DNA of 64,000 nucleotides. It comes from Pseudidiomarina terrestris. GTDB taxonomy: Bacteria; Pseudomonadota; Gammaproteobacteria; Enterobacterales; Alteromonadaceae. The position numbers and the translations under genes are program-made. Shown piece after piece: positions 25,133 to 42,624 of this stretch (position 1 is its first letter; every line of letters begins with the position of its first letter). The DNA is taken from positions 124,001 through 188,000 of the forward strand of contig NZ_JAGGJF010000003.1 of assembly GCF_030466405.1 (NCBI RefSeq), given 5' to 3'. The notes under the pieces were generated by a model that worked only from the letters and a program-made list of their open reading frames with translations, had not been told where the DNA came from and ran no database searches.

Positions 25133-25996
25133 ATGATCCAAAGCATGACCGGATACGCGCGCCACGAACTGAAAGCCGAATGGGGAACAGCGACGTGGGA
25201 ACTGCGATCAGTGAATCAACGTTTTTTAGAAACCTACTTCCGTTTGCCTGAGCAGTTCCGTTCGATGGAGAACATGCTACGTGAGAAGCTGCGCAAGCAA
25301 TTGCAGCGCGGCAAAGTCGAGTGCAACCTGCGCCTCAATATCGAACAGAAAGTCGAGGGCGGCTTGCAGCTGAACGAAGAGCTGGCGAAAAGCGTGATCT
25401 CCAGTGCCAACTGGGTGTCCAACCAAAGCTCATCGTCTTACCTGAACCCGCTCGACGTGCTGCGCTGGCCAGGTGTGGTTGCGCAAAGCGAGGACGACGT
25501 GGATGCGATTCAGGCGGACGTCATGGCCGCCTTTGATACAGCCGTTGCTGAATTTATCGATAATCGCGCCAGCGAAGGTAAAGCGCTGGAGCGTCTTATT
25601 GAAGAGCGTCTGGAAGGTGTCTCTGAACAATCTGCTTTCGTGCGTAAGCGTATGCCAGAAGTGCTCGAGTGGCAACGTGAGCGCTTACTCACTCGTTTAG
25701 AAGATGCCAAGGTTGAACTTGACCCGCAGCGTCTGGAAAGCGAAATGGTGATGCTGGCGCAAAAAACCGATGTCGCTGAAGAGCTCGACCGTCTCGACAC
25801 CCACGTCGTCGAAACTCGCAAAATCCTGCGCAAAGGCGGAGCCTGCGGCCGTCGCCTCGACTTCATGATGCAAGAGTTCAACCGCGAAGCCAACACCCTT
25901 GGCTCCAAGTCCATCAACACCGACATCACCACCGCCGCCGTCGAACTGAAAGTGCTGATTGAGCAGATGCGGGAGCAGATACAGAACATCGAGTGA
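25133..25996 (+). CDS. yicC: YicC/YloC-family endoribonuclease
   Basis: A 287-residue conserved protein of a family shown to be an endoribonuclease acting on RNA hairpins and sRNAs. It has MTGYARHE, WELRSVNQRFLE, the central RGKVECNLRLNIEQ, and the C-terminal GACGRRLDFMMQEFNREANTLGSKS. The 3' end is the known integration site of some mobilisable genomic islands of Vibrionaceae and relatives. Here the next 16.6 kb are foreign-looking and end in a copy of the yicC 3' end. Confidence 0.95.
   Translation: MIQSMTGYARHELKAEWGTATWELRSVNQRFLETYFRLPEQFRSMENMLREKLRKQLQRGKVECNLRLNIEQKVEGGLQLNEELAKSVISSANWVSNQSSSSYLNPLDVLRWPGVVAQSEDDVDAIQADVMAAFDTAVAEFIDNRASEGKALERLIEERLEGVSEQSAFVRKRMPEVLEWQRERLLTRLEDAKVELDPQRLESEMVMLAQKTDVAEELDRLDTHVVETRKILRKGGACGRRLDFMMQEFNREANTLGSKSINTDITTAAVELKVLIEQMREQIQNIE
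25976..25996 (+). repeat. attL (3' end of yicC)
   Basis: The last 21 bases of yicC including the stop. Shares CAGAT plus the 11-bp core CAGAACATCGA (one base between) with the copy at 42,604; 18 of 21 positions agree. The reading frame of yicC is intact, as expected for an att site at a gene end. Confidence 0.75.
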
Positions 25997-26101
25997 TGTA
26001 CTGACCGGCGGGGTGACCTTATAAATCAGTAGGATACCAGGGAACAGTTGACTTAAAATACCCCAAGTTCACTAGCGTAAACAGTCCAGTTGGATACAAT
26101 T

Positions 26102-27250
26102 ATGTATTCAACTGGAGTTCTCACTTCATGTTTCTACGTTCGCCACTTGCCACAGATTGCTGGTAAGAATGTCGGAAAAGCGTGGTTAATGTGGCCCGGT
26201 AAATCATTCAAGCCCGATGGCATTGGCTTTTACCCCAAGCCCGAGAAGTGCCTTGCGAGCGTATTTAATACCTATACCGCCTCGCATGTGGTGCCGTTAC
26301 CGGGTAGCTGCGAGCCGTACCTGAATCATTTGAAACACGTGATATGTGCAGGCGATGAACGAGCCTACCACTATCTCATTCAGTTTATGGCGCACCTTCT
26401 GCAAAAGCCGGACGAGAAACCAACTACAGCGATTTTATTACGCTCGGTAGAGGGAACGGGGAAAGGAACTATGGTGAAGCCTTTGTTGGCGATGGTAGGC
26501 GCTCAGGGAGCACATATAAACGGGCATCATCACATCACCGGCCAATTCAATAGCGTAATAGCCAACAAGCTGCTGATATTTGCTGACGAAGTAGACCTTT
26601 CATCGAGCCAAGTAGCTGACAAGCTCAAGGCGCTCATTAGCGAACCCATTGTGCAATTGGAACGCAAAGGACTCGAACCGATAGCGATACCCAACTATGC
26701 CCGGTTGATATTTGCCAGTAACCGCGATTTCGTGCTGAAAGCTGGCTTAAAAGAACGGCGTTACTTGGTGTTGGAGCCTTCGGCTGAATACGCACAAGAC
26801 CAGCGCTATTTCAGTAAGCTGCACCAGTGGTTAGAAAATGGCGGAACGTCGTTTCTGATGGATTACTTGTTAAAGCTCGATATTAGCGCGTTCAACCCAT
26901 ACAAAGCACCGACCACATCCGCACTAATGGAGCAAAAGCTGCAAGCCATGCCGTTGATATACCAGTATGCGTATCAGAACCTAAGCAGTGAGGCACCCTT
27001 TGCAGGCCGAGCACGAATCTTGTCGACCGATGCCATCAATGACTTTATGCACTGGTGTGAGAACCACAATCATGATGTGAGTTATGGCAGTGCCAGCAGC
27101 TCGGTGGGCAAGCTGTTCAAAGAGATCGCAGACCAAGTTCATGGCCGGTCAGATCGAGGTGGCCGGTATTTTGAACTCGGTAGTGTTGATGGTATGCGCG
27201 AGCGATTTGCAGGACTTATCGGAGCTGAACCACATGACCTCTTCGACTAG
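26102..27250 (+). CDS. Truncated DUF5906-type primase-helicase of a phage/satellite
   Basis: Matches the C-terminal helicase part of large phage or satellite primase-helicases. It has a LNHLKHVICAGDERAYHYLI block, Walker A (SVEGTGKGT), Walker B (LLIFADEVD), a sensor-like NYARLIFASN and ERRYLVLEPS. Full family members carry a long N-terminal primase part that is missing here: an in-frame stop lies at 26,078-26,080 and homology begins about residue 25. No good ribosome site is seen. It is likely a non-functional relic of the element that entered at yicC. Confidence 0.75.
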   Translation: MYSTGVLTSCFYVRHLPQIAGKNVGKAWLMWPGKSFKPDGIGFYPKPEKCLASVFNTYTASHVVPLPGSCEPYLNHLKHVICAGDERAYHYLIQFMAHLLQKPDEKPTTAILLRSVEGTGKGTMVKPLLAMVGAQGAHINGHHHITGQFNSVIANKLLIFADEVDLSSSQVADKLKALISEPIVQLERKGLEPIAIPNYARLIFASNRDFVLKAGLKERRYLVLEPSAEYAQDQRYFSKLHQWLENGGTSFLMDYLLKLDISAFNPYKAPTTSALMEQKLQAMPLIYQYAYQNLSSEAPFAGRARILSTDAINDFMHWCENHNHDVSYGSASSSVGKLFKEIADQVHGRSDRGGRYFELGSVDGMRERFAGLIGAEPHDLFD

Positions 27251-27408
27251 TTGACTAGTGCGCGTTATTGATAATGATGTAGTTGGAACACCAATACCTG
27301 GAACGCTGCATCGTTTGAGGTAACGCGTTTTTTCTAAACCCTTCAAACGATAGTAATACTCCTAGATCTCGGTGTTCGTGAACGCATACGCAAAGAAGGA
27401 GAACAAAT

Positions 27409-27645
27409 ATGCCGCACATTTTAGAGATGTCAGAAGAGCACATCGAAAATCATTTAAGAATGACAGGTCAAACCCGAGAGGAGCTCGAAGCGAGGTTCAA
27501 ATCCGAGCGTGAAAGAGACATGCGAGAAGGCTTTGATGAATCAGATTGGGTGCAGGACTGTGATCCAAGCCAGCGAGACAAATTCACTATGCCGATTGCA
27601 TTTGAAATCGTCGGTGATGACAACGAACAAGAGAACAAAGAGTAA
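27409..27645 (+). CDS. Small acidic hypothetical protein
   Basis: 78 residues, very rich in Glu and Asp, mostly helical by composition, no membrane segment. A good AAGGAG ribosome site lies seven bases before ATG 27,409. The leader contains an inverted repeat (ATCGTTTGA at 27,310 and TCAAACGAT at 27,343) that may be an operator. Followed after 25 bp by a lipoprotein gene. Family not recognised. Confidence 0.6.
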   Translation: MPHILEMSEEHIENHLRMTGQTREELEARFKSERERDMREGFDESDWVQDCDPSQRDKFTMPIAFEIVGDDNEQENKE

Positions 27646-27670
27646 AAGAAAGTTAATACGGAGAACGCTC

Positions 27671-28183
27671 ATGAGAAAAACAATGATAACAATGACTCTA
27701 GCCACTCTTCTAACCGCATGTTCAACCACTTCTGGAACAGGACCCGATATATACACAAGTGGATTTGATAACAGCACATTAGTCGAAATTGCCCCTCATG
27801 GTGCGGCTTGCACGACCGCCTGTCTTGGATTGGGAGCACAATGGAACGAGGCGCACGGAGATGAAGCCTTTCTGATTGTGGCCAACTTTATGGACTTGGT
27901 GGCTATTCTGGACGCCCAACTAAACATTGACGGTAAAATTGTAGATCTTGAGTCAGCGGACCTGCTTACTGGTCAAGAAACTAACTCAGGCGTTCGAACA
28001 TCGACAAAAGGGTTTCGCACAAACCTTGAAACGATTGAAGCGATAATCAATGCCAAGCGCGTGTGGTTGCGGATCGAAACACCAACCGGAACGCGAGAAG
28101 ACCGCATTATTGATGCTTCCGGTGATAGTACGGCCTATCATGCTATGAAGCGTTTTATAAGCGCTGTAAAAAGTGCTGATTGA
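27671..28183 (+). CDS. Small exported lipoprotein
   Basis: 170 residues. The N-terminus (MRKTMITMTLATLLTACSTT) is a lipoprotein signal with lipobox LTAC, Cys near residue 17, so the product should be anchored to the outer or inner membrane. The rest is soluble and has no family I recognise; it contains a Cys pair (CTTAC) near residue 50. Start ATG 27,671 is chosen over an earlier TTG because it begins the signal peptide. A hairpin terminator follows. Confidence 0.7.
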   Translation: MRKTMITMTLATLLTACSTTSGTGPDIYTSGFDNSTLVEIAPHGAACTTACLGLGAQWNEAHGDEAFLIVANFMDLVAILDAQLNIDGKIVDLESADLLTGQETNSGVRTSTKGFRTNLETIEAIINAKRVWLRIETPTGTREDRIIDASGDSTAYHAMKRFISAVKSAD

Positions 28184-28221
28184 GGAGTCCCACCTCTACC
28201 ACAAGCACTGGTTTTGATAAG

Positions 28222-28251
28222 AAAGCACTCTTCCGTTGGGGAGGGTGCTTT
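28222..28251 (+). terminator. Rho-independent-like terminator
   Basis: Stem formed by AAAGCACTCTTCC and GGGAGGGTGCTTT around a GTTG loop, 38 bp after the lipoprotein stop. The U run is short (TTTCTC), so strength is uncertain, but it cleanly separates the lipoprotein unit from the defence operon. Confidence 0.6.
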
Positions 28252-28432
28252 CTCACTTAAAACCTACCGTACCCATCTAGTAGCTAATAAAATACGGGAC
28301 TTTGCTCATCTGGTATAGGTGGGCACCGTTCGTTATGAGATTTTACTAAGTATCCTTTGATGCGAAGATCGCTGCTCCTTTGGTTGGTCGTATTCTCTCG
28401 ACTTAATAAGCACTTGTGACACATTAATCAGT

Positions 28433-28452
28433 AATGTAATCTGCAGTACATT
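28433..28452. promoter_or_regulatory. Candidate operator upstream of the RHH/defence operon
   Basis: Inverted arms AATGTA and TACATT flank an ATCTGCAG centre, 25 bp before the RHH start. Short dyads at such a place are typical targets of ribbon-helix-helix autorepressors. Binding by the RHH protein encoded next is an inference. Confidence 0.35.
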
Positions 28453-28477
28453 TGCAAACATTTATCGGGATAGTGTG

Positions 28478-28675
28478 ATGGCTTCCACAAAGACAGCAAC
28501 TCTCACGATTCGGGTCGAGCCGGACATAAAAGAAGCACTTCGTATAGCTGCGCGAGAAGAGCACCGCTCTATTGCGAATATGCTTGAAGTTCTCATACGA
28601 GAGCATTGTGAAAAAAATAGCATTGCCATCGGAAAATCGACGACAAAAGAACAACCTAGGGAGCGTTCGGAATGA
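28478..28675 (+). CDS. Ribbon-helix-helix protein, first gene of the defence operon
   Basis: 65 residues. A CopG/Arc-like RHH fold is suggested by TATLTIRVEPDIKEALRIAA (beta strand then helix) and REEHRSIANMLEVLIREH (second helix). Probably a DNA-binding dimer that represses the operon. Start ATG 28,478 is preferred over GTG 28,475. The stop overlaps the ATPase start (ATGA), so expression is coupled. Confidence 0.75.
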   Translation: MASTKTATLTIRVEPDIKEALRIAAREEHRSIANMLEVLIREHCEKNSIAIGKSTTKEQPRERSE

Positions 28676-31600
28676 TAAAAACGGTAAAGCAATCCTGTCG
28701 TTTTAACCCTGTTATTCAAGACTACAGAATGAGCCAGGGCATAGAAAACCTTGCAGATTTAATTACTGATGAGGGAGATGGTCAGGAGTTCTTTTCACGA
28801 AATTACGTGACTCACGGTATGGAGCAGCTTTTTAGAGAGGGTATGCTTCGCCTTTCTGGTAAGTCTGATCAAGCCGTGTTTGAACTGAACCAAGCGATGG
28901 GTGGCGGTAAAACGCACATGATGATCGCGCTTGGATTGCTAGCTAAACACGCACATTTGCGTCCTAACGTGCTTTCTGAGGATATAAACGGCCGGCTCGA
29001 CTTTGGCAACGCGCGAATCGCGGCGTTCAACGGTCGTAATTTTCCAGATAACTATATTTGGGGGGACATAGCCACTCAACTTGGTGCTGGAGAAAAAATA
29101 AAAGACCACTGGGTAAACGGACCAAAAGCAGTTGATCAGAAGAAATGGAAGGAAATCATCGGTGACGAGCCGACGTTAATTATGATCGACGAATTGCCTC
29201 CATATCTTGATAACGCTACTACGCAGCAACTGGGGTCTGGAACGTTGGCAAATATGGTTGTTTACAGCCTAAGTTCATTGATGAGCGCTGCCTTAGAACT
29301 TCCTAAATGCTGTATCGTTATTGCGAACCTTTCAGGAAGTTATGGGGCACAGACGAAAGCTCTGAAAGAAGCAATTTCCAATCTTCAGCAGGAAACGCGA
29401 CGTCAAGCAATGACGATAACACCGGTACAGTTATCTGGTAACGAAATATACCAAATACTGAAAAAGCGCTTAATCGATGAACTTCCTGATGAGCAAACAA
29501 TAAATGACATTGCTGAGGAATATGCTCAGCAGATAAAGAAAGCCGAAGATGGTGGCTACATCATTGCATCAAGTATTGAGCAAATAACCGAACAGGTTAG
29601 AGAAACGTACCCATTTCACCCATCATTTAAGCATCTAGTTGCGTTATTCAAAGAAAATGAAGGTTTTCGACAAACTCGAGGGCTAATGCAATTTACTGCG
29701 CGCCTTCTAAAGAGTGTTGAGCAACGAGATGCCGATGATGTGTTTCTTATTGGCGCGCAACACCTGGATCTTAATGATGAACAAGTGAAAGATGAGATTG
29801 AAAGAATTTCTCCACGTCTCGTACCTGCTATAACCAGAGATATTGCAGATAAAGGTGATGCAATCGCAGAGAATATCGACTCCGAGTTGGGAGCCGATTC
29901 AGCACGCCAACTAATGACGTTATTGCTCACGTCATCATTATCCCGAGCTGTAGGTGGTCGAATTGGTTTATCCGAGAGTGAAATCATTGAATTTTTGGCG
30001 GCTCCGCAGCGCAAGGCAGACGAGTTTTTAACGGCACTGCAAAAACTTAAGGAACAAGCTTGGTACCTTCATCGTGAAGATGAACGCTATTTCGTTAAAG
30101 AAACGGAAAACCTTTCTCGCCAAATTGAGAGAAATGCTCGAGAGATTCCGCAACCAAAAATCGATAGTGCGCTTATCAACAGATTATCTGGAATTCTTCA
30201 ACCTACGCGTAAAAACGCTTATCAAGATGTTCAGGTTCTCCCAAGACTTGATGATTTGAAGTTAAGTGGGCCGAGGGTACTTATTGTTGTGAAACCTGAT
30301 GGTAAAGTCCCTCCTAATGAACTTCAAAATTTCTTTGAATTTCAATTAGAAAAAAACAACTTCCTCGTTCTGACTGGGCAGGACAGTACATTTGCTGATG
30401 CTGTTGAGGACAGATTGAGAGAATTATACGCAATAGAGCAAATAGAGCGACGGTTGAAGCCTGGCGACACATTATTTGAAGAAGCTCGCGATCGAAGGGA
30501 AGAGGCTGAGGGACGCTTCATAAAAGCATTGTCTGCTGCTTACAACACCTTGTTGTTCCCAGGAGTAGAAGAAATGGACGGCTCTGATCGTTTATTAAAA
30601 GTTACCATTGATAATGGGCTAAGAGTCGGAGATGGTGATCAATCCGCAGAAGCCCAAATTGAAGCTTTACTGAGTAGTCCGAGAGCGAATTATAAACTGG
30701 TGCTGGATTTAAAAAACGACTTTACGACATACTTTGCAATGGCTGAGGCTGAACTATGGGCCGGCGGGGCTGGTAACAGAAGAATGCCATGGAAAGACGT
30801 GGTAAGCCGAGCTAAAACAAACCCTGGCTGGCCGTGGATGCCTGGTAGCAGCGGAATGGACACGCTTCGAGCGGAGGCAATGAAGCAGGACCGTTGGAGA
30901 ATGGGTGAAGACGGGTACATTGAAAAAGGGCCATTCCCAAAAGAGAAGACGACAGTTAACGTCTCTTTGATGCAAGTTAAGCCTGAAACGGGTGAAGCTA
31001 TAATAAGTCTGACCCCTCGGAACGCCGGTGAGAGTCCAGTAGTTTATTACTCGACCTCGCAAAACGTCTCAACCGCAGATAAGAAAGTTGAAGAACTTGA
31101 AAACTTCGTTACGACAGAGGGAACCCTTTATTTTTATGTAGTTGATCCTTCGGGCAAATTTGAGCCAGGCCAGCCAACACGCTGGACAGCTGAATTGAAG
31201 ATAAGACATCAAGTCGAACCTCATGGTGACAAGCGAAAAGTTAGCTTGCAGTGCACCCCCAAGGGGGATATGTATTACACCCTAGATGGCTCCAATCCTA
31301 AAGACGGTATTAAGTACGAAGGAGCCTTTGAGATTGGTTCTGAAGCGGCACGGTTGTTGGTTTTCGCGAAGTCAGGAGAAGCGACAAAGACCGTAGATTT
31401 TCAGATTCCGAATAGTGGTGATAGAGAGGTTCAAATTGATGACGCGAAACCTGCACGTCTCTCGGCGGCCAAGCGAGTTTCTATGGACAACACGCAACAA
31501 GTGTTCGCCGTTATCAATAAATTTAAAGATCAACCCAAAATTCAGTTTAAAGGTGTCCGCATCGAAATCGGTGAGGGCGAGAATACAGTCGCTATTCGCT

Positions 31601-31797
31601 TTGGCGAACGTAAAATTACAGCAGCAATTATCGAGTCTACTGTGAACAGCTTGAGAGATGTTCTTGAGGAGCAAGATGCAAACGTTACAGTAGCAGTCAA
31701 AGACGGAGTCGAATTCGAAACCGGATTCGAAGCCAAAGAATTCGCTAAAACTCTGGGTTTAGAGTTACGACCTGGCGACATCATACAAGATGATTAA
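28672..31797 (+). CDS. DUF499-family AAA+ ATPase of a helicase-methylase-ATPase defence system
   Basis: A 1041-residue ATPase. Walker A is AMGGGKTHMM (about 76-84), typical of DUF499, and Walker B is LIMIDELPPY (about 169-178); an arginine-finger region and a long alpha-helical middle follow. The C-terminal third has a chitobiase-C-terminal-like beta repeat (CTPKGDMYYTLDGSNPKDG, near 865), which could bind DNA or a partner. DUF499 proteins are found with DUF3780, DUF1156 and PLD-helicase genes in defence islands, as here. The mechanism is not known from sequence; it probably powers sensing or remodelling of foreign DNA. Confidence 0.85.
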   Translation: MIKTVKQSCRFNPVIQDYRMSQGIENLADLITDEGDGQEFFSRNYVTHGMEQLFREGMLRLSGKSDQAVFELNQAMGGGKTHMMIALGLLAKHAHLRPNVLSEDINGRLDFGNARIAAFNGRNFPDNYIWGDIATQLGAGEKIKDHWVNGPKAVDQKKWKEIIGDEPTLIMIDELPPYLDNATTQQLGSGTLANMVVYSLSSLMSAALELPKCCIVIANLSGSYGAQTKALKEAISNLQQETRRQAMTITPVQLSGNEIYQILKKRLIDELPDEQTINDIAEEYAQQIKKAEDGGYIIASSIEQITEQVRETYPFHPSFKHLVALFKENEGFRQTRGLMQFTARLLKSVEQRDADDVFLIGAQHLDLNDEQVKDEIERISPRLVPAITRDIADKGDAIAENIDSELGADSARQLMTLLLTSSLSRAVGGRIGLSESEIIEFLAAPQRKADEFLTALQKLKEQAWYLHREDERYFVKETENLSRQIERNAREIPQPKIDSALINRLSGILQPTRKNAYQDVQVLPRLDDLKLSGPRVLIVVKPDGKVPPNELQNFFEFQLEKNNFLVLTGQDSTFADAVEDRLRELYAIEQIERRLKPGDTLFEEARDRREEAEGRFIKALSAAYNTLLFPGVEEMDGSDRLLKVTIDNGLRVGDGDQSAEAQIEALLSSPRANYKLVLDLKNDFTTYFAMAEAELWAGGAGNRRMPWKDVVSRAKTNPGWPWMPGSSGMDTLRAEAMKQDRWRMGEDGYIEKGPFPKEKTTVNVSLMQVKPETGEAIISLTPRNAGESPVVYYSTSQNVSTADKKVEELENFVTTEGTLYFYVVDPSGKFEPGQPTRWTAELKIRHQVEPHGDKRKVSLQCTPKGDMYYTLDGSNPKDGIKYEGAFEIGSEAARLLVFAKSGEATKTVDFQIPNSGDREVQIDDAKPARLSAAKRVSMDNTQQVFAVINKFKDQPKIQFKGVRIEIGEGENTVAIRFGERKITAAIIESTVNSLRDVLEEQDANVTVAVKDGVEFETGFEAKEFAKTLGLELRPGDIIQDD

Positions 31798-31815: not shown

Positions 31816-32886
31816 ATGAGAAGCGGTAATAAAGCAAGTGCAGGTGTGACAGTGCGTATCGGTACACTAGGATTCGGTGTGCCAACTACAAGCGATCCAC
31901 ATCACTTCAAAGTAGTTATTCCAAAAGCAAACTCTGGAAAAGTCCTCATCAGTGAACATCTTGGCTTACAGGCCCAAAGTGACGAGGTTGCGGTAATAGA
32001 GCGTGTGCTTTTAGAACGTTCACGTTGGACAGCAATTCGTGCTGAAGTGCAGCGAGCATTTAACACTCGATTGAAGGGAAATGGATTACCATCTAGCACT
32101 TGGAAGGTTGGAGAGAACCCTGTTGATCGATTGCTCGGTAAAGAACTTTGCGTTTTAGCTTGGGCAATTGAAACCATGGATGTTGAGAATATTCCAGTTG
32201 CTATCCGAAATTGGCTAGCACTGCGTCAAGAAGAGCGTTGGTGGTTATTTGGAATGACGGCTAAAACTTCGGGAGGGGCAGAAGACCGTGATGTGGGGTG
32301 GCGAATCGCATTGCGTCATGCCCTGGGTGATATTGTTCAGACAGACCAGCTTGAGAGTGAAAGCAGTAAGCTCCCAAGTGAGCTAGAGAAACTACCCAAA
32401 CCACACTCGAACGCAGAAGCACAACCGGTTGATGAGAAGCAATTACCGCTCAGCGAAACTAGCGATGAAGATTCACAAAGAGAAAGTCACCCTGATGCAC
32501 CGGTACTCGATGAGTCAAATAACGATCAATCACAAACAGAAGAAACTTTGTTTTTATTTGAAGCGAAGAAAGCGAAGGCAGTTGGGCTTCCTGTCGGTGA
32601 GATGAGTAACCCCGAATTTCTTGTAAAAAAAGGCTCTACAGCAAATATTGCACAAGCCAAATCATTGCGTCCAGCGATTAGAGAGCTCCGTCAAAAACTA
32701 TTGGAGGAGGGAACTCTTGAAAAGCAAGGAGAGGTTTATTCTTTTATTCACGAACATTTATTTAAAAGTCCTAGTGCTGCAGCATGTGTAATTGCTGGTA
32801 ACCCAAGGAGTGGTATGGATGCATGGCGAGATATGCAAGGGCGTAGTCTCAAAGAGTTAGGTTACGGTAAAAAGGTTAATGTGTAA
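31816..32886 (+). CDS. DUF3780-family defence protein
   Basis: 356 residues. The N-terminal domain has the family opening GFGVPTTSDPHHFKVVIPKA, then EVQRAFNTRLKG and the block WLALRQEERWWLFGMTAKTSGG. A Ser/Glu-rich linker (about 185-245) separates a C-terminal alpha domain (about 260-350). No catalytic motif is recognised. It lies 18 bp after the ATPase gene and always occurs in this gene set, so it is probably a structural or specificity subunit. Confidence 0.82.
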   Translation: MRSGNKASAGVTVRIGTLGFGVPTTSDPHHFKVVIPKANSGKVLISEHLGLQAQSDEVAVIERVLLERSRWTAIRAEVQRAFNTRLKGNGLPSSTWKVGENPVDRLLGKELCVLAWAIETMDVENIPVAIRNWLALRQEERWWLFGMTAKTSGGAEDRDVGWRIALRHALGDIVQTDQLESESSKLPSELEKLPKPHSNAEAQPVDEKQLPLSETSDEDSQRESHPDAPVLDESNNDQSQTEETLFLFEAKKAKAVGLPVGEMSNPEFLVKKGSTANIAQAKSLRPAIRELRQKLLEEGTLEKQGEVYSFIHEHLFKSPSAAACVIAGNPRSGMDAWRDMQGRSLKELGYGKKVNV

Positions 32887-35900: not shown

Positions 35901-36003
35901 TATTTTGCAATTTATTGAACGCAAAGCGCCGGAGCAAAAAACGCGCGATGCAGCTGAAGTTCTGGGGTCGCGATTCAAGAATATGAGAGCCATCGGTGAT
36001 TAA
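32974..36003 (+). CDS. DUF1156-type DNA methyltransferase (amino-methylating)
   Basis: A 1009-residue SAM-dependent DNA methylase. The N-terminal DUF1156 part has YWKGRKPLILVRAIILGSLLP (near 48-70). The SAM-binding motif is GDAFCGGGSIPFEA (about 231-244) and the catalytic motif is DPPY (about 625) in ITDPPYADAVNYHEI, so it should methylate adenine N6 or cytosine N4. It presumably marks host DNA so that the helicase/ATPase act only on unmodified invaders. Start ATG 32,974 has TTTGGAG upstream; the 87-bp gap before it is the largest in the operon. Confidence 0.87.
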   Translation: MENLTPFRLKDEPALIEAVFPAQKISYEAQAERKAVAAQTLTGLGSYWKGRKPLILVRAIILGSLLPQTDDRKKDLEIFEMLMGFDNVSLAKRALISNTIRPAQIAQTISLSNPWKYFSHNISKEDPKYPEVRDSCLPIKSDNVAFKLKWQRGMDESDKVKIISLYLETLSTYEEKASLCKRPEEVNQEWLSSHIWDGVNNHLSFIGVSATSINSLVEQLGILRFGHRPQVGDAFCGGGSIPFEAARVGCHAYASDLNPIACMLTWGAFNIVGGELTVREEIEQVQQNINERIDQKIKALGIENNENGDRAKAYLYCVEVTCPETGWKVPLSPSWVISPKQKTIAILEPDYETKSFKIIVESGVSNQALREAEKGTVQSSNMVFSLDGKTYRTPIKTLRGDYRTPEGISANKLRKWGVLDFKPREDDIFRERLYAIQWIKKESVNSPRQSYFFTGVSPADLELEKAVDALIKENIENWQVAGLVSNMEIETGYNTEQPIRERGWTHWHHLYNPRQLLLMAMAKKEWLSSPFPQFGMLNIAKMADFNARLSRWKPSQGGGLGGPVGVFSNQALNTFFNYATRSWAGYGASSFKIAEQPLGSDIQRKVFSVSATEPKATCDFWITDPPYADAVNYHEITEFFIAWLRKNPPAPFDEWTWDSRRALAIKGNGDEFRRSMSEAYSALRANMPDNGMQCVMFTHQDTRVWSDMIGIFWSAGLQVIGAWYIATETTSELKKGGYVQGTVILMLRKRPESEKSGFKQRLLPAVRAEVEQQIRTMLNLNTEIESMVGESVFNDSDLQMAGYAAALKVLTSYTHIGGEDVRGFALRPRQKGEVTVVDEIVQQAAEAANSLLVPDGLQAGTWQKLSGIQRFYLRMMDIETTGASKLDNYQNFAKAFRVEDYTRVMSSLVANKAKLKEISEFSSRDLADSTEIGATWLGSIIIAIQQLQADVEPQVAIIQLRNDLPDFLEARPVLLDILQFIERKAPEQKTRDAAEVLGSRFKNMRAIGD

Positions 36004-36036: not shown

Positions 36037-38787
36037 ATGACTATCAGACGCTTTTCATCACGAACGCACCGATTAGACTCAACATTTTTGCTCGAGCAGT
36101 TGAAAGGTGCGCGAAGCTACAAACGAATTGCGGGTTACTTTACAAGTTCGCTATTTGAAGTTGCTAATGAGCTCATTGAATCAATTCCTGATGTGAAGAT
36201 TGTCTGTAATGTAGATATCCATCCTGATGATTTGAAAGTCGCTCAGTTACGAGAGGCGAAAATGATTGGGCGCTGGAACGAAAGAGATGTAGAGGCCGAA
36301 AGCCTATTAAATCGCGAACGATATCGGCGTTTAGATAGTTTCCTCGCAAAACACGGCCAGGTTATTCGTGTTGCGCCGGATAGTGTGTGCGGTTTTCTTC
36401 ATGGTAAAGCGGGCGTAATTGAGTTAGCTAGCGGTAAAAAAATTGGCTTTATGGGGTCAATGAATGAAACCAGCAGTGGCTGGCAGCGACACTATGAAAT
36501 TCTTTGGGAGGATGAATCTCCGGAAGGCGTAGCTTGGATCGAGGAGGAATTTGAATTCTTATGGAATGCGGCTAAGCCCATGCCACAAGCCGTTATCAAA
36601 GAAGTGAAGCGCCGAGGACACCGACATGAAGTTTCATTTGATGATATTGAGGACGAGGAAGATTTAGCTCCAGCGGCGCTGATTGAGTCACCGCTATATC
36701 GGCAAGGTTTTTCTCTTCAACCATGGCAACAAGGTTTCGTTACTGAGTGTATCCGTCACTATAAAAATAACGGAATTGTTAGACTTCTAATTGCGGACGA
36801 GGTTGGCTTAGGAAAGACACTTTCGATGGCAACAGCTGCTTTGTCACTTTGTTTATTGAGTGATAAAGAGAGTAAGAAAAGAAAACCGGTCATTATTTTT
36901 GCACCCGCTACGCTATGTGAGCAATGGCAAACAGAGATGATCGACAAGCTGGGTATTCCATGCGCTCGCTGGCACACTCAGAAGAAAGCGTGGATAGATC
37001 CAGATGAACGGATCATCTCGCCTCAGGGACAAGAACATATTGCAAAGTGTCCGCTCCGTGTCGGCATAGTATCAACGGGTTTAATGCTTCGAGACTCTCT
37101 TGAGAAGCAGTATTTACTCGGCTTACGTTACGGTGTCGCAATTTTAGACGAGGCCCATAAAGCACGAAGTCGACAAGGTTTTGGTAAAGACGCTGGGACC
37201 TTTAATGAGTTACTCTCATTTATGCGTGAAATTGCCGCTCGCTCCGAACATGTAATTTTAGGAACGGCGACCCCAATCCAAACTCGACCAGAAGATCTCT
37301 GGGATTTGATGGGAATTCTTCATCAGGGAGATGGTCGTTTTGTTCTTGGTAATGAGTTATCCAAATGGCATCGACCAAAAGACGTACTTCCTATTTTATC
37401 GGGCATTGAAAGAGTTACAGAGCCGAGTTTCGCATGGGAGTTATTACGCTCTCCTCTACCGGTCGTAAATTCCACAAACGATCCAAATGCCCGGCGTTTA
37501 TTTAGTGCCATAAGACAGGATCTTGGTTTAGCCGATCGGAATGATAAATGGGATATCCGCAATTCTCTATCAGACTGTTCAGATGACACGCTGGACTATC
37601 TCGAAGATGAGCTTCACCGTGATATTGCTGGGGCAAGCTTTTTTCAGCGAGAAAATCCATTTATACGCCACATTGTTCTGCGTAAACGCACCACATTAGA
37701 GGATGCGGGACTTTTAGCTGCAATCGCGGTTGATGTTCATCCGAATCCTGAATTTGCTAAAGAGCTTCACCGCTTTAACAGTCTTTTTGAAGGCAAAGCG
37801 CTCCGCACAACAGAAAACTTCCGACAAGCATATTCGGAAGCACAAAGCTTTAGCAAGGCCCTTTCAAACACTGGCAAAGGCGGCGGGTTCATGAAGAACC
37901 TGATGGAGCAAAGAATTTGTTCTAGTATTGCCGCTGGTCTCAATACTGCTCGAATGTTACTAGAGGGTAGAACGATAGAGGAAGAAAACGATGATGGAAT
38001 TATTGAGCTAAAAGCATCGAGTCCTGAAGAAATAGCTGTACTCGAAAGAATGATAGAACGCCTTGAAAATATTGAAGAAGATCCAAAGCTCAATGCTGTT
38101 ATCCATTATCTTGAAAAAGAGAATTGGCTTAAACATGGTGTGATCATATTCAGTCAGTACTACGATACAGCGAAGTGGGTAGCCGACTCTTTGGCAAGTC
38201 GATACAAAGATCGGGCAGTTGGTTTGTATGCTGGTGCTGGCAGAAGTCGCCTATATCAAAATGGTGATAGTGTTTCGATTGAAAGGGAAACATTGAAAAA
38301 AATGGTTGCCGAGCACCAATTAGAAATTATGGTTGCAACCGATGCTGCTTGTGAAGGCTTGAACTTACAAACTCTCGGAACCTTGATAAACATAGATCTT
38401 CCCTGGAACCCTACTCGTTTAGAACAGCGAATTGGTCGCATCAAAAGGTTTGGGCAAGTTCGCGAAAAAGTTGACATGTTGAATCTTGTGAACGAACAGA
38501 CTGTCGATGAGAAAGTGTACGATAAGCTCTCTGAGCGCATGCAAGACCGCTATAACTTGTTCGGCTCTCTGCCAGACACTATTAGAGATGAATGGATAGA
38601 AGATATTGAGCACATGGGCGAGAAAATGGACGAGTACATTAACGCTCAAAAGCAGGCTAATGGCTTTGATCTGCGTTACACAGAGACAATGGCTCCTTCT
38701 GAAAAAGACTGGCGAGATTGCGCAAATGTGCTCTCTAGAAGAGACTTTACCGAGTTAATGATGACCGGTTGGAGTGGTGGTGAATAG
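36037..38787 (+). CDS. Superfamily 2 helicase with N-terminal phospholipase D-like domain
   Basis: A 916-residue SNF2/RapA-like helicase. The N-terminal PLD-like domain has one HxK site (HGKAGVIEL, about 122) and GSMNETSSGW (about 139), which in relatives is a nuclease. Helicase motif I is ADEVGLGKT (about 253), motif II DEAH (about 370), motif III GTATP, and motifs V-VI ATDAACEGLNLQT and QRIGRIKRFGQ (about 796). Last gene of the defence operon, 33 bp after the methylase. Likely the effector that tracks along and cuts or unwinds unmodified DNA. Confidence 0.88.
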   Translation: MTIRRFSSRTHRLDSTFLLEQLKGARSYKRIAGYFTSSLFEVANELIESIPDVKIVCNVDIHPDDLKVAQLREAKMIGRWNERDVEAESLLNRERYRRLDSFLAKHGQVIRVAPDSVCGFLHGKAGVIELASGKKIGFMGSMNETSSGWQRHYEILWEDESPEGVAWIEEEFEFLWNAAKPMPQAVIKEVKRRGHRHEVSFDDIEDEEDLAPAALIESPLYRQGFSLQPWQQGFVTECIRHYKNNGIVRLLIADEVGLGKTLSMATAALSLCLLSDKESKKRKPVIIFAPATLCEQWQTEMIDKLGIPCARWHTQKKAWIDPDERIISPQGQEHIAKCPLRVGIVSTGLMLRDSLEKQYLLGLRYGVAILDEAHKARSRQGFGKDAGTFNELLSFMREIAARSEHVILGTATPIQTRPEDLWDLMGILHQGDGRFVLGNELSKWHRPKDVLPILSGIERVTEPSFAWELLRSPLPVVNSTNDPNARRLFSAIRQDLGLADRNDKWDIRNSLSDCSDDTLDYLEDELHRDIAGASFFQRENPFIRHIVLRKRTTLEDAGLLAAIAVDVHPNPEFAKELHRFNSLFEGKALRTTENFRQAYSEAQSFSKALSNTGKGGGFMKNLMEQRICSSIAAGLNTARMLLEGRTIEEENDDGIIELKASSPEEIAVLERMIERLENIEEDPKLNAVIHYLEKENWLKHGVIIFSQYYDTAKWVADSLASRYKDRAVGLYAGAGRSRLYQNGDSVSIERETLKKMVAEHQLEIMVATDAACEGLNLQTLGTLINIDLPWNPTRLEQRIGRIKRFGQVREKVDMLNLVNEQTVDEKVYDKLSERMQDRYNLFGSLPDTIRDEWIEDIEHMGEKMDEYINAQKQANGFDLRYTETMAPSEKDWRDCANVLSRRDFTELMMTGWSGGE

Positions 38788-38948
38788 TGAATTGAAACAA
38801 TGTGTTTTTTATAGCACTAACTCCAGACTTTTCAGCCCCGTCGGCATCACCATTAAAGAATAATGATGTTGAGTCTCAAGCAGAGCTACTAGCGATTAGC
38901 TATTTAACTTGAAATCTTTTAACTTATAAGTAAAATGAGCTACCCTTA

Positions 38949-39323
38949 ATGGCGCAGACAAGGCAAATTCTTCAAGCTAACGATAATGTTCAAGACTCCT
39001 TGAGCGAAGCTATGAGACATGTCCCTGCACACATGCGGACCAAGGTAGCCCTTAAGTTTCAAGCGTTGTTTGAGATGTATCAAGAAGGAACTGACTGGCG
39101 AGTTCCAGCGCAATGCAATGTTGAGGGAGAGCTTGAGGACCGGCGGAAATTTTTGGCGGTCAAGGTACAACAAGTTCGCTGTTACGGTTGGTACCACCGT
39201 GGAAATTTTGTGATTAGTCACTATATCTATAAGAAACAGCAGAAGCTGTCGAAAGCTGATACAAGAGCAGTGCAAGAAAACTACAGAGCGTGGTTGCAAA
39301 CAATTGGAGAAGATAATGAGTAA
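38949..39323 (+). CDS. HigB/RelE-type toxin of a toxin-antitoxin-chaperone module
   Basis: 124 residues. The C-terminal half has the HigB/RelE-like fold pattern (RRKFLAVKVQQVRCYGWYHRGNFVISHYIYKKQQKLSKADTRAV reads as beta strands then the KKxxK-type helix). It should be an mRNA interferase that cuts during translation. A promoter-like TTGAAA-N16-TAAAAT lies at 38,909-38,936, close enough to ATG 38,949 that the mRNA may have almost no leader, and no ribosome site is visible. The stop overlaps the antitoxin start. Confidence 0.78.
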   Translation: MAQTRQILQANDNVQDSLSEAMRHVPAHMRTKVALKFQALFEMYQEGTDWRVPAQCNVEGELEDRRKFLAVKVQQVRCYGWYHRGNFVISHYIYKKQQKLSKADTRAVQENYRAWLQTIGEDNE

Positions 39324-39732
39324 ATTTGACTTTCAGAACGCCTTTTCAGAGTGGACTGACACTGAGAACGAGCAGGAGAAAGCGTGTAAAGTTGCTCAAG
39401 AGAAAGCAATCTACCGCATCGCAAATGAGATTTATCATGCTATGAAAGAGGCCGAGATCAGTAACTCCCAGCTTGCCGAGTTAGTTGGTAAGAAGCCTGC
39501 ATTCATTACTCGAGTTTTCAAAGGTGATCACAACATGACTGTTCGCACAATGGCGAGCCTTGCTTTTGCATTAGGAAAAGAAGTGCATTTCGACCTGCGT
39601 GATCGTGCAACTGAAGGATACAGCTGGGAAAACGTCCAAGTGAACATCGGCGATAATGTTGTTGATTTCCCGAATCACCTCCACACCAGCCGACGTGTTG
39701 ATGTTGATGAATGCGAATATCAAGCAGTTTGA
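39316..39732 (+). CDS. HigA-type XRE antitoxin with chaperone-addiction tail
   Basis: 138 residues. A helix-turn-helix is visible at ISNSQLAELVGKKPAFITRVFKGDHNMTVRTMASL (about 48-82). A C-terminal extension of about 40 residues (YSWENVQVNIGDNVVDF...) goes beyond the usual HigA end. In known three-gene systems this tail (ChAD) makes the antitoxin unstable until a SecB-like chaperone binds. Start ATG 39,316 has GGAG seven bases upstream; TTG 39,304 is less likely. It overlaps the toxin gene by 8 bp and should repress the operon. Confidence 0.8.
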   Translation: MSKFDFQNAFSEWTDTENEQEKACKVAQEKAIYRIANEIYHAMKEAEISNSQLAELVGKKPAFITRVFKGDHNMTVRTMASLAFALGKEVHFDLRDRATEGYSWENVQVNIGDNVVDFPNHLHTSRRVDVDECEYQAV

Positions 39733-39742
39733 GGCTCAATAA

Positions 39743-40213
39743 ATGAACGAAGCATTGATTCAGCCAGCAGTCGACAACCTCAGCATAGAGAAAGTTGACT
39801 TGCTAACAGCCCGAGTTGACTGCGATGAGGTATTCTCATTTAGCAAACCCAAGCCAAATTGTAATGTAAAAGTTGGTCGTGGTTTGGTCAGCTTTTCTGT
39901 GTTGGAGCCTGGTGAAGGCGAGGAAGGTAACCCGAAGTATGTTGCCTACGTTTATCAATGTGGCCTTAAGTTCGAGCCGAAAGAAGTCGATGCGGAAGCG
40001 TCAGATAGTGATTGCACAACACTTCTTATCGAAGCTCGTTTCAGCGCTATTTATGTGATGAAAGACGACGTAAACGAAGACTCTTTGCGCGAGTTTGGAC
40101 GTTTTAACGTTCCTTACCATGTATGGCCATATTGGCGTGAATACGCGCAATCAACACTGTCACGCATGGGCGTTGAGCCTGTGCCTATTCCCGTATATCG
40201 ACTCCGCAAATAA
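39743..40213 (+). CDS. SecB-like chaperone of the toxin-antitoxin-chaperone module
   Basis: 156 residues with a SecB fold signature. Beta strands in the first 110 residues are followed by FGRFNVPYHVWPYWREYAQSTLSRMGVEPVPIPVYR, which matches the SecB pattern of a WPY-RE helix and an RMG turn. SecB-like proteins placed directly after higBA protect the antitoxin's C-terminal tail, making the toxin responsive to protein-export stress or phage. The gene order toxin-antitoxin-SecB and a 10-bp gap support this role. Confidence 0.75.
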   Translation: MNEALIQPAVDNLSIEKVDLLTARVDCDEVFSFSKPKPNCNVKVGRGLVSFSVLEPGEGEEGNPKYVAYVYQCGLKFEPKEVDAEASDSDCTTLLIEARFSAIYVMKDDVNEDSLREFGRFNVPYHVWPYWREYAQSTLSRMGVEPVPIPVYRLRK

Positions 40214-40475
40214 ATTTCAAACGAACCATATAGTCTAAAATTTGATCAACCGAATAAGGTGATGTAAAGTCACCTTACGAATTAAAAGCGTCGCCAAGGA
40301 TATGAGGTAAAGCGCAGTTTGAATTCCCCGCTCAGATAGTTTTCCTCAAGGAAAGAGCCCACCAGTTCAAGTTTCCTCGACTGCATCTGTCTTTGATAAT
40401 GCGCAGAAGTATTATGCGGTTTCGTCTAGTGAATACGAAAAATAAGATATTAATTTACCAGTGAGATAATAAAGT

Positions 40476-41063
40476 ATGTCTTTCGATGATTTGTTGACTG
40501 ATACGGTAAGTTTGCTGAAGCAAGATGGAAAAAAAGTAGACGGAATAAAAGCTAGCGTTCAGAAAGGGAAAATTTTTATTCAACGCTCTGACCTGGTAAT
40601 TGAACCGGATGATTTGATTCGAAGACGGATGAGTAATGGTGCGGAAGAAACCTATAAGGTTATTGACCCTGGTTTTCATGAAGCATTTCATGATATCCCC
40701 GCAGGCTACCAAATAGATGTTCGCAAATTAGGTGTACCGGAAGCGGCAAGTGCGGTTCAAAACATAACTTACAATATCTCGGGCGTAAACAACCGTATAA
40801 ATCAAAATTCAACAGACAACTCGATTAACAGCGCAGTTATATATCCTGAAGTTAAAAGTCACATTGATGCTTTAAGAGAAGAAATTCGGCGACAAAAAAT
40901 TCCCGAAGAAGAAAAGGTTTCGGCTAATGAAATTATTGATGCGGTCGAGACCCAGTTTGAAAGCGGAGTCCCCAATAAAACCGTAATAAAAACGTTACTG
41001 TCAGCACTACCAAATGCGGCAAGCATTGCGTCTATTGGCTCATTTATTATTTCTTGCTTATAG
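40476..41063 (+). CDS. Unknown protein, first gene of the terminal island cassette
   Basis: 195 residues, not assigned to a named family. Residues 1-80 look like a small beta-rich domain (GKIFIQRSDLVIEPDDLIRRRM). A segment of Asn/Ser-rich beta strand follows (NITYNISGVNNRINQNSTDNS), a motif I associate with proteins of defence islands. The C-terminal helix pair includes IDALREEI and a hydrophobic end (ALPNAASIASIGSFIISCL) that could be a membrane anchor. It is 9 bp from the next gene, with a 262-bp leader containing no recognised element. Confidence 0.65.
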   Translation: MSFDDLLTDTVSLLKQDGKKVDGIKASVQKGKIFIQRSDLVIEPDDLIRRRMSNGAEETYKVIDPGFHEAFHDIPAGYQIDVRKLGVPEAASAVQNITYNISGVNNRINQNSTDNSINSAVIYPEVKSHIDALREEIRRQKIPEEEKVSANEIIDAVETQFESGVPNKTVIKTLLSALPNAASIASIGSFIISCL

Positions 41064-41072
41064 GAGTCACCA

Positions 41073-41441
41073 ATGAAACTTGAACAATTTGTCGAAGAAA
41101 GTTTGAAACAAATAATTACTGGTGTTCTCAAAGCTAAGGAGTATGGCGAAAAGAACGGAGCGTACGTCAATCCTGTGAATGCAGCATTTAATAGCAATAG
41201 TGAGAACGTTATTTATTGTACAGAAACAGGAATACCTCTTCAGCAAGTGGCGTTTGATGTAGCAGTAACGGTTACCAGTTCGCAATCTGAATTTAGTGAT
41301 AGTCAAGCAGAAATAGGCGACATAACCGTGTCGGGCTCAACGTCCGAAAGCAATTCATCTAACAGTTCTGCGAGTCGAATAAAGTTCCTAGTACCGGTGC
41401 GTCTACCTACTTCCGGTAAACAGGATAGTGATCATTGGTAA
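41073..41441 (+). CDS. Unknown protein, resembles the trypsin-co-occurring (trypco) domain group
   Basis: 122 residues. The N-terminus (MKLEQFVEESLKQIITGVLKAKEYGEKNG) is an amphipathic helix, then NPVNAAF, QQVAFDVAVTVTSS and a final RIKFLVPVRLP strand separated by a Ser-rich loop. The helix-strand-loop-strand pattern resembles small domains reported alongside proteases in bacterial conflict systems. That resemblance is from memory and weak. A TAGGAG ribosome site precedes the start. Confidence 0.6.
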   Translation: MKLEQFVEESLKQIITGVLKAKEYGEKNGAYVNPVNAAFNSNSENVIYCTETGIPLQQVAFDVAVTVTSSQSEFSDSQAEIGDITVSGSTSESNSSNSSASRIKFLVPVRLPTSGKQDSDHW

Positions 41442-41465
41442 TCTGAAAAACAGGTAAATTCTCTG

Positions 41466-42038
41466 ATGGAACTAAAATTTGACCTTAAGGAGCTTGATGG
41501 CACCGACGTTAGCGAAGAAAAATTAGAGTCGATACGAATATCTCTGAATCTCTCCGATAAAGATGACCTTGAGCCAACGCTTACCAAGCTCGCCAACGCT
41601 GGCTTGGCAGAATACTTGGAAATGCTTGCTGGGAAAGGTATGCCCAATCGGGCCGACGAAGCGAAGCAGGACAGACTACTTTACTTGATAAAGAAAGTTT
41701 TTTCTCCGAGGTTGCCATCTGAAGATGATATTTCGATTATGTTTCAGCTGACTACAACACAGTCGAGAACATTATTGAGGAACACGCTTTCAAGGTATCG
41801 GATAAAATTAAGGGATGAACTGCACACGACTTTAGATGAGATATTTAAAACGGCAGTTTCTGGAAAGAACGGGTGGGATATTACTATTCCGTCTGAGGTC
41901 TTAGTTGAGCAGTTTAATTTAATTGTTGCTAAAGAGGGAGCTGAATACAACCCTATCCGAAAGCAGTCTGTGGGAAGTAAAAAATATTTTATGACCGGTG
42001 ATACACATGTCGCCCTAGGAAATCATTTTGGAAGCTGA
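41466..42038 (+). CDS. Unknown alpha-helical protein of the terminal island cassette
   Basis: 190 residues, mostly helical. The middle section (FSPRLPSEDDISIMFQLTTTQSRTLLRNTLSRYRIKL) could form a helix-turn-helix, and the C-terminus ends in GDTHVALGNHFGS. No family recognised. It begins 24 bp after the previous gene and overlaps the following membrane-protein gene by 11-14 bp, so it is an operon member. Confidence 0.65.
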   Translation: MELKFDLKELDGTDVSEEKLESIRISLNLSDKDDLEPTLTKLANAGLAEYLEMLAGKGMPNRADEAKQDRLLYLIKKVFSPRLPSEDDISIMFQLTTTQSRTLLRNTLSRYRIKLRDELHTTLDEIFKTAVSGKNGWDITIPSEVLVEQFNLIVAKEGAEYNPIRKQSVGSKKYFMTGDTHVALGNHFGS

Positions 42039-42420
42039 TGTTTTAAACTCAATTTCTGCTCTCAGTGTTATTTTTGGTGTCGCAGTTTTTCACCTTGGCG
42101 CCTCATCAAAAAAAATTTTAGCCGCTTTAGAATTGGATATTCCTGCGAAAACACTGAGATTAGAACGAATGCAAAGTCGTAAGGAAGTCCTTGTGGCTCT
42201 TCTGATCGGAGCTTTTCCAAACTTTATGATGTTGTCAGCGATATTCATCGTGATGCTTCCGAGTATGATCCGATATATTAGAATTTACGAATTCAATTTG
42301 TTTGCTTTTAGCTTTATGGTTACGTTGTTCCAAATTCTTGGATTTATCGTGATGTTTTATGTAGTGATATCTTTCGCGAACATTCTAAAACTTAGTAAAA
42401 AATGGCTAGAATTATTGTAA
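42028..42420 (+). CDS. Small integral membrane protein, last gene of the island cassette
   Basis: 130 residues with about three membrane helices (near 9-25, 52-76 and 90-115) and a short charged segment between the first two (LERMQSRKE). No family recognised. The start is non-standard: TTG 42,028 or ATT 42,025, with AGGA just upstream at 42,017-42,020, inside the preceding gene. A membrane protein coupled to three soluble genes in a defence island invites comparison with membrane-acting effectors, by inference only. Confidence 0.65.
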   Translation: MEADVLNSISALSVIFGVAVFHLGASSKKILAALELDIPAKTLRLERMQSRKEVLVALLIGAFPNFMMLSAIFIVMLPSMIRYIRIYEFNLFAFSFMVTLFQILGFIVMFYVVISFANILKLSKKWLELL

Positions 42421-42603
42421 GAAGGGCATAAGTTGGGGTGCGACGAGAGATAAACGGTGCTCTTCCGTTGCTGTAGTCGAGCTATTTATTTGCTATGTCT
42501 AAGATCCAACTGGATCCAAAAATGGATCCTAAACTCAAAAAACGCCACAAACAAACAAGGCAACCATTTGTTTCATAAGAAAATAATATTCACATCATCG
42601 ATT

Positions 42604-42624
42604 CAGATCCAGAACATCGAATAA
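42604..42624 (+). repeat. attR (copy of the yicC 3' end)
   Basis: Matches the yicC terminus at 25,976-25,996 at 18 of 21 positions, including the unbroken core CAGAACATCGA and a stop-like TAA in the same place. Flanking bases on either side do not match, which marks the edges of the repeat. It lies just after the last island gene. Confidence 0.7.

What the first reader, a model, noticed from the sequence alone, without database searches (positions are those of the whole stretch)
25976..42624. Genomic island bordered by a copied yicC 3' end, with no integrase
The last 21 bases of yicC recur at 42,604-42,624 (18 of 21 identical, 11-bp core CAGAACATCGA), exactly where foreign-looking genes end. 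yicC is a known integration site for mobilisable islands. The usual integrase next to attL is absent; only a truncated primase-helicase remains. A defence island frozen in place, or one mobilised in trans, would follow.
Basis: partly seen in the sequence, partly recalled or inferred. Interest (0 to 1): 0.75.

Follow-up and report, generated by a model that had tools for sequence, protein, structure and literature searches.

The report
Defence island stranded by integrase deletion
A 16.6-kb mobile DNA island carrying anti-virus genes sits at the end of a housekeeping gene in a bacterium and has lost the enzyme that moves it, which relatives still keep; this is a clear example of an already known kind of event.

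Summary
The 3' end of yicC (25,976-25,996) recurs at 42,604-42,624 (18 of 21 bases; 0 of 1,000 shuffles). Aliidiomarina iranensis and G083 carry islands with the same left and right ends at yicC, each with a tyrosine integrase directly after yicC; A. iranensis also has an AlpA-type excisionase. The window lacks about 3.1 kb of that module, from just upstream of int to codon 65 of the helicase gene. The 30 best integrase loci from 295 family genomes all lie beside yicC. Empty sites exist: cleanly G015 for the A. iranensis and G014 flanks; less cleanly G007 for the window's flank. The cargo includes a complete DUF499/DUF3780/DUF1156/PLD-helicase system, published as 'Type-2 BR'. Best reading: a decayed yicC-specific island, frozen in place, CIME-like in anatomy. 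Mobilisation in trans is not excluded but has no positive support: no close yicC-type integrase, TraI_2 relaxase or MobI was found in this genome, and the left arm's TGGATCC boxes are gone. New member of a known kind.

The parts
25133..25996 (+). yicC, intact; its last 21 bp are the left att core
   Evidence: ORF 287 aa; 98% aa identity to G007 yicC
25976..25996 (+). left att core (attL), last codons of yicC
   Evidence: 18/21 identical to 42,604-42,624
25997..26132 (.). left arm of the island, between yicC and the lost integrase gene
   Evidence: 26,020-26,132 is 80% identical to A. iranensis L026 6753-6868; the only match among the 25 yicC loci searched (G083, not in that set, matches too)
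26132..26135 (.). deletion junction: about 3.1 kb present in A. iranensis (L026 about 6869-10000: int, DUF6387, AlpA, two small ORFs, first 64 residues of helicase) is missing
   Evidence: blastn and alignment; gene content
26135..27250 (+). truncated DUF5906 / P4-type helicase (residues 65-435 of the relative's protein; ORF reads from TTG 26,090)
   Evidence: 97% aa identity; Pfam DUF5906 2.4e-22
27509..28183 (+). backbone ORF of unknown function (weak entericidin-lipoprotein match), shared with the A. iranensis island
   Evidence: 68.5% aa identity over 27,479-28,171; NCBIfam below cut-off
28672..31797 (+). DUF499 AAA+ ATPase of the defence system
   Evidence: PADLOC DUF499, full length; NCBIfam DUF499_antiphage over cut-off
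31816..32886 (+). DUF3780 protein with C-terminal DUF4357
32974..36003 (+). DUF1156 adenine methyltransferase
   Evidence: PADLOC full length; NCBIfam DUF1156_antiphage over cut-off
36037..38787 (+). PLD(HKD)-SNF2 helicase, putative nuclease-helicase effector
38949..40213 (+). three-gene cluster: small ORF (RelE-like by eye only), HTH protein, SecB-like protein; possible toxin-antitoxin-chaperone set
   Evidence: HTH_3 2e-4, below cut-off; PADLOC PDC-M64B 3.5e-12 for the HTH protein; SecB 0.0016, below cut-off; weak match to SecB-like Rv1957 (E 0.32); no hit for the first ORF
40476..42420 (+). four cargo ORFs of unknown function
   Evidence: no family over cut-off in Pfam or NCBIfam (last ORF not scanned there); the first one matches phrog_16834 4.4e-58 and part of PADLOC PDC-M14B 9e-8
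42505..42603 (.). right arm of the island, conserved in six yicC islands (this one included)
   Evidence: 77-82% identity over about 120 bp in G002, G012, G013, A. iranensis, G083
42511..42529 (.). paired TGGATCC boxes in the right arm, candidate integrase arm or excisionase site (inferred)
   Evidence: GGATCCAAAAATGGATCC identical in 4 of 6 islands, one base different in G012, only one box in G013
42604..42624 (+). right att core (attR), the displaced original yicC 3' end
42997..44373 (+). HipA-family YjjJ-like gene outside the right repeat; separate acquisition, not counted in the island
   Evidence: NCBIfam YjjJ 3.6e-125; match in 4 of 26 genus genomes, own included, one of them short and weak

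Best explanation
The 16.6 kb is a decayed genomic island of the family whose tyrosine integrase recombines into the 3' end of yicC. SHOWN by comparison: relatives with the same ends carry the integrase module between the left end and the helicase; about 3.1 kb covering it and the helicase's N-terminus is missing here; both 21-bp att cores remain; yicC is intact; cargo differs from island to island between conserved ends. INFERRED: the ancestor arrived by site-specific integration, recreating the yicC end on its left and pushing the original end to the right; a later internal deletion stranded it; it is now inherited vertically as a fixed defence locus. Its main cargo would mark the cell's DNA through the DUF1156 methyltransferase and attack unmarked invading DNA through the PLD-helicase, with DUF499 ATPase and DUF3780 as sensor or coupling parts (function as proposed in PMC12839542, not tested here). 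The island could move again only if integrase and excisionase came in from another yicC element.
For: Left end 80% identical to A. iranensis over 26,020-26,132 and right end 80% over about 120 bp; the shared helicase has dS 0.32 while yicC of the same pair has dS 2.7 (saturated), which points to horizontal transfer. Integrase and AlpA in A. iranensis by Pfam and PHROGs; G083 has the integrase at 97%, and the A. iranensis stretch with AlpA is 85% identical there (its AlpA was not scanned). 30 of 30 fetched best integrase loci are adjacent to yicC (lower-ranked hits not checked). Unoccupied site G015 aligns with the DNA right of the A. iranensis and G014 right repeats. G007 has yicC followed after about 0.1 kb by the gene that lies at 44,870 in the window. 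Four-gene defence set full length.
Against: The window's own right flank is not a clean empty-site match: 2.2 kb with a yjjJ-like gene separates the right repeat from the G007-syntenic gene, and only a REP-like stretch of about 60 bp aligns there. The truncated helicase shows no decay (dN/dS 0.04, no internal stop, three private residues in 259), so the deletion is either recent or the remaining protein is still used. Assembly error at the junction cannot be tested without reads.
Confidence: 0.86

Rival explanations
1. The island is a functional cis-mobilisable element: it keeps both att sites and is moved in trans, or by accretion, by integrases of other yicC elements that visit the population.
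For: Both cores and most of both arms remain. Integrase-bearing yicC elements occur in genus-mates G014, G017, G024, and in split form in G009. Published yicC islands GISpuPO1 and GISspANA3 have 21-bp att sites and excise when excisionase is over-expressed (PMC8978831, passages read).
Against: No close yicC-type integrase, TraI_2 relaxase, MobI or AlpA match found in this genome. The left arm has lost both TGGATCC boxes seen upstream of int in A. iranensis and G083, one by the deletion and one by substitution. The genus-mates' intact integrases are only 40-42% identical to the A. iranensis one.
Confidence: 0.12
2. Chance repeat: the region is an ordinary chromosomal defence cluster and the 21-bp similarity is coincidence.
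For: With three mismatches allowed over the whole window a second match is not very rare (11 of 100 shuffles).
Against: 0 of 1,000 shuffles at the observed identity; conserved arms at both ends in other genomes, with intact integrases there; unoccupied sites.
Confidence: 0.01
3. Assembly artefact: the integrase exists in the strain but was collapsed out of the assembly.
For: Draft genome of 14 contigs; the junction lies inside one contig but reads were not available.
Against: The genome's only match to the A. iranensis integrase is distant (E 6.9e-18); no AlpA match (no positive control); an excised form would remove the whole island, not an internal 3.1 kb.
Confidence: 0.03

Closest known systems
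yicC-targeting genomic islands GI21 / GISpuPO1 / GISspANA3 of Shewanella (PMC8978831; passages read)
   Same: 3' end of yicC as the site (GI21 itself now lies inside another island); 21-bp att sites reported for GISpuPO1 and GISspANA3; GI21 order integrase, hypothetical gene, AlpA excisionase at the left end and restriction-type cargo in the middle, as seen here in the A. iranensis relative
   Different: the window has lost integrase and AlpA; its HipA-like gene lies outside the right repeat, whereas GI21's hipAB lies next to attR inside; no sequence comparison with GI21 was made here
CIME (cis-mobilisable element; definition in PMC5704250, passage read)
   Same: att sites kept, integration genes lost
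   Different: the definition derives it from an ICE or IME; no conjugation or mobilisation gene was recognised in the intact relatives' islands, so the ancestor's class is unknown
MGIVflInd1-type and SGI1-like mobilisable islands at yicC (PMC8409611, PMC5704250; passages read)
   Same: integration at yicC 3' end
   Different: no MobI in this genome or in A. iranensis (G083 has one, far from its yicC island); SXT-type oriT and AcaCD sites were not searched for
DUF499-centred 'Type-2 BR' (BREX-related) system (PMC12839542, passages read); NCBIfam and PADLOC anti-phage DUF499/DUF1156/DUF3780 set
   Same: all four genes, full length, in one block; an Fn3-associated domain near the C-terminus of DUF499 and a PLD (HKD) domain at the N-terminus of the helicase
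   Different: DUF3780 here is fused to DUF4357; the passages read name fusions to ASCH/PUA and RAMA domains, and whether DUF4357 corresponds to one of these was not tested

Membership tests
yicC-specific integrase island | inserted at 3' end of yicC with direct repeat of the gene end | tested here: met
   18/21 repeat, unoccupied sites in relatives
yicC-specific integrase island | tyrosine integrase next to attL | tested here: not met
   absent; present in relatives with the same ends; filed as a decayed derivative, not as an active member
yicC-specific integrase island | conserved end sequences shared with integrase-bearing members | tested here: met
   left and right arms 77-81% identical to A. 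iranensis and G083
CIME | attL and attR cores retained | tested here: met
CIME | integration genes lost | tested here: met
   about 3.1-kb deletion
CIME | derived from an ICE or IME (transfer genes or oriT in ancestor) | tested here: inconclusive
   MobI in 1 of 6 genomes, G083, far from yicC; the intact islands' cargo was read by eye, not scanned for relaxases; oriT not searched
CIME | can still be moved in cis or by accretion | not testable with these tools
   needs excision assay
Type-2 BR system | DUF499 ATPase, standalone DUF3780, DUF1156 N6-methyltransferase, HKD-helicase together | tested here: met
Type-2 BR system | anti-phage activity | not testable with these tools
   needs phage challenge
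SXT/R391-mobilised MGI | helper ICE or SXT-like oriT | tested here: inconclusive
   TraI_2 (PF07514) absent from own genome; oriT not searched

The most novel reading that the evidence does not exclude
In this genus yicC is a repository of integrase-less defence islands that share a conserved right arm. 0 of the 4 found (this one, G002, G012, G013) has an integrase, against 2 of 2 in Aliidiomarina. Loss of the integrase module while the right arm and defence cargo stay could be a recurrent, selected route by which mobile defence islands become fixed, or the islands could circulate on integrases borrowed from other yicC elements.
Probability: 0.12. Interest if true: 0.5.

Novelty: new member of a known kind. 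Interest (0 to 1): 0.3.

Why it matters
It shows, with intact relatives for comparison, how a mobile defence island can become a fixed chromosomal defence locus: one internal deletion just inside the left arm removes integrase and excisionase but leaves the ends and the defence genes. The integrase-less islands in three genus-mates make it possible to ask whether such stranding is repeated and selected or just ordinary decay. By itself it is one more example of decay of an integrative element.

Tried and rejected
SXT/R391 helper: TraI_2 search of the own genome was empty (of 14 control genomes it rang in 3, over the cut-off in 2). MobI: none in the own genome (0 of 14 controls rang, but G083 did). 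Resident integrase acting on this site: the genome has four PF00589 hits. Two are taken as XerC and XerD by length (recalled naming, not tested); one domain hit (C11:8421-8924) lies about 0.8 kb from a tmRNA gene and so probably targets ssrA; the fourth (C7:517601) was not examined further. Plasmids: the A. iranensis integrase matches 1,546 plasmid records, none at 60% identity or more, best listed 39%; not followed.

Right-end-only islands: I first expected G002, G012 and G013 to keep the left arm too. They do not match it. G002 has native-looking DNA after yicC (similar to G003), so its history is more complicated and I do not use it as proof of one shared deletion. G001, G004 and G005 also have a second core-like match downstream of yicC with no integrase hit near it; in G005 the DNA from about 0.65 kb past that match aligns with the G014 and G015 flanks. 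I did not annotate these three and do not count them. G018 had no yicC match. In G010, G019, G006 and G009 the contig ends 306, 13, 4,747 and 2,585 bases after yicC, and elsewhere at most about 17.6 kb after yicC was read in the genus-mates, so the survey is incomplete.

Second island between 42,624 and 44,855 (yjjJ-like gene): no third att copy in the window, so a tandem element could not be shown. PDB sequence searches for the small toxin-like ORF and the SecB-like ORF gave nothing significant. Literature searches pairing yicC, Idiomarina and genomic island (8 of 40 papers listed) and yicC, defence island, hotspot, integrase (10 of 25 listed) showed no title that I recognised as describing this island; only the listings were seen for these, apart from the four papers whose passages I read (PMC8978831, PMC12839542, PMC8409611, PMC5704250). 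No structure prediction was run.
Full report
CONTEXT. The window is G000:C8:124001-188000 of a 2.63-Mb draft genome in 14 contigs. Genus-mate G002 has the contig length of Pseudidiomarina aquimaris SW15 contig 9, so the organism is taken to be a Pseudidiomarina (inference). The window holds no tRNA gene. GC per kb is 0.49-0.61 before 26 kb and 0.395-0.485 from 26 to 43 kb.

THE REPEAT. The last 21 bases of yicC, stop codon included (25,976-25,996), recur at 42,604-42,624 with 18 of 21 identical. On the + strand of 25,997-46,000, 0 of 1,000 dinucleotide shuffles reached 18 of 21, and 0 reached 16 of 17 for the inner block. With 3 mismatches allowed over the whole window the match is less impressive (11 of 100 shuffles had two or more). 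In the whole genome the degenerate core with up to one mismatch occurs three times: these two exactly, and one with a mismatch on another contig; the backwards control occurs once. The right copy reads like the yicC end of several genus-mates (CAGATCCAGAACATCGAATAA in G014, G003, G020 and G004), while the left copy has deviating letters, as expected if the element brought a new gene end and displaced the old one.

INTACT RELATIVES. A search with the truncated helicase found Aliidiomarina iranensis (L026) and P. aquimaris (L027). In A. iranensis yicC is followed by the same left arm (80% over about 116 bp), then a 396-aa tyrosine integrase (Phage_integrase 8e-23, Arm-DNA-bind_3), a DUF6387 protein, an AlpA protein (Phage_AlpA 2e-10; phrog_2790 'excisionase and transcriptional regulator'), two small ORFs and the 435-aa DUF5906 helicase. 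Its right end, about 120 bp ending in the att core at 22,075 of the joined stretch, is 80% identical to the window's. G083 has the same layout, with the integrase at 97% and its right core at 18,768. Neither island shares the window's defence cargo; both carry a type I restriction system (named by eye from the translations).

THE DELETION. Window 25,124-26,132 aligns with L026 5856-6868, and 26,135-28,279 with L026 10,001-12,146. About 3.13 kb is missing: integrase, DUF6387, AlpA, the small ORFs and the first 64 residues of the helicase. The helicase remnant is 97% identical over residues 65-435, with dN/dS 0.04 against A. iranensis, no stop, and three residues private to the window in the 259 codons shared by four sequences. 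So the deletion is recent, or the remnant is still under selection; the data do not separate these. Helicase dS (0.32) is far below yicC dS (2.7, saturated) for the same pair, so the island moved between the two genera after they parted.

SITE SPECIFICITY AND EMPTY SITES. Of 295 family genomes, 247 have some match to the A. iranensis integrase at E 0.001, many of them distant. Loci were fetched for the 30 best; all 30 contain yicC ending just upstream of the integrase, one of them (L059) with only the yicC 3' part matched. Lower-ranked hits were not checked. G015 has an unoccupied yicC end whose downstream DNA aligns with what follows the right repeat in A. iranensis and in G014: clean occupied/empty pairs. 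For the window, the nearest relative G007 (yicC 98% aa) has only about 0.1 kb between yicC and the gene that stands at 44,870 in the window. The match is imperfect because the window also has 2.2 kb with a YjjJ-like HipA gene there; only a REP-like stretch of about 60 bp aligns. That gene has a match in 4 of 26 genus genomes, own included, one of them short and weak.

GENUS PATTERN. Among the yicC loci of the genus (25 of 26 genomes have yicC; up to about 17.6 kb after it read in the genus-mates), the conserved right arm occurs in four: the window, G002, G012 and G013. A search of 196 family genomes with the right end gave matches in 11: own, G012, G013, A. iranensis and G083 over about 120 bases or more, and six others over 21-48 bases only; G002 is not among those hits. 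None of the four has an integrase near yicC by PF00589 or by two integrase queries. Their left ends differ, so the losses look separate; G002's left side looks native. Integrases sit beside yicC in G014, G017, G024 and, split, in G009. This is 0 of 4 against 2 of 2 in Aliidiomarina: suggestive, far too few to test.

CAN IT STILL MOVE? Against: no close yicC-type integrase (own-genome best E 6.9e-18), no TraI_2, no MobI, no AlpA match (no positive control). The right arm keeps a GGATCCAAAAATGGATCC block that is identical in the window, A. iranensis, G083 and G002, has one base changed in G012 and is reduced to one box in G013. The two TGGATCC boxes upstream of int in A. iranensis and G083 are gone from the window's left arm, one deleted and one altered. 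That these boxes bind integrase or excisionase is my inference. For: both cores are present, and published yicC islands with 21-bp sites excise when excisionase is over-expressed (PMC8978831, passages).

CARGO. The four-gene block 28,672-38,787 matches the PADLOC models over nearly their full length and NCBIfam anti-phage DUF499 and DUF1156 over cut-off (the other two genes were not scanned there). PMC12839542 (passages) describes this set as Type-2 BR, an RM-like system with an HKD-helicase effector. The DUF3780 protein has full-length match in 1 of 295 family genomes, the own one; nine others match only in the C-terminal region (query residues from about 242 on). Among 72,556 plasmid records 29 match it, none over 80% of its length, at best 70% identity over residues 17-177. 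Downstream lie an HTH protein, a weak SecB-like protein and unknown ORFs.

VERDICT. A yicC-specific genomic island stranded by an internal deletion, carrying a known type of defence system. It is like a CIME in anatomy, but CIME membership is only partly tested: the ancestor's transfer class is unknown and excision was not testable. New member of a known kind.

Noticed in passing
window 42997-44373: YjjJ-like HipA-family gene just outside the right att repeat, absent from the nearest relative; published island GI21 carries hipAB just inside its attR, so this may be a remnant of a second element.
   Followed up: partly
window 38949-40213: Possible toxin-antitoxin-chaperone set (HTH protein plus SecB-like protein, weak match to Rv1957).
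   Followed up: partly
window 47881-49376 against L028 2810-4280: Order of the SRAP-like gene (named by eye) and the NERD gene downstream of yicC is swapped between the window and G007, with extra genes before them in the window; the flank is generally fluid.
   Followed up: no
L037 2364-11773 (G013), L027 9569-19493 (G002), L046 2364-11840 (G012): Three other integrase-less yicC islands with different, partly restriction-type cargo (by eye) and the same right arm.
   Followed up: partly
L029 about 1195-1468 on its - strand (G014; positions 18533-18806 when turned so that yicC is +): C-terminal integrase fragment just right of the right att repeat, a trace of an older element at the same site.
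   Followed up: no
L087 (G000:C11) 8421-8924 and 9757-10116: Another integrase of the own genome beside the tmRNA gene, probably a separate ssrA-targeting element.
   Followed up: no
window 36353-36368 and 42618-42633: A 16-bp perfect inverted match between the PLD-helicase gene and the right att edge; may be chance.
   Followed up: no
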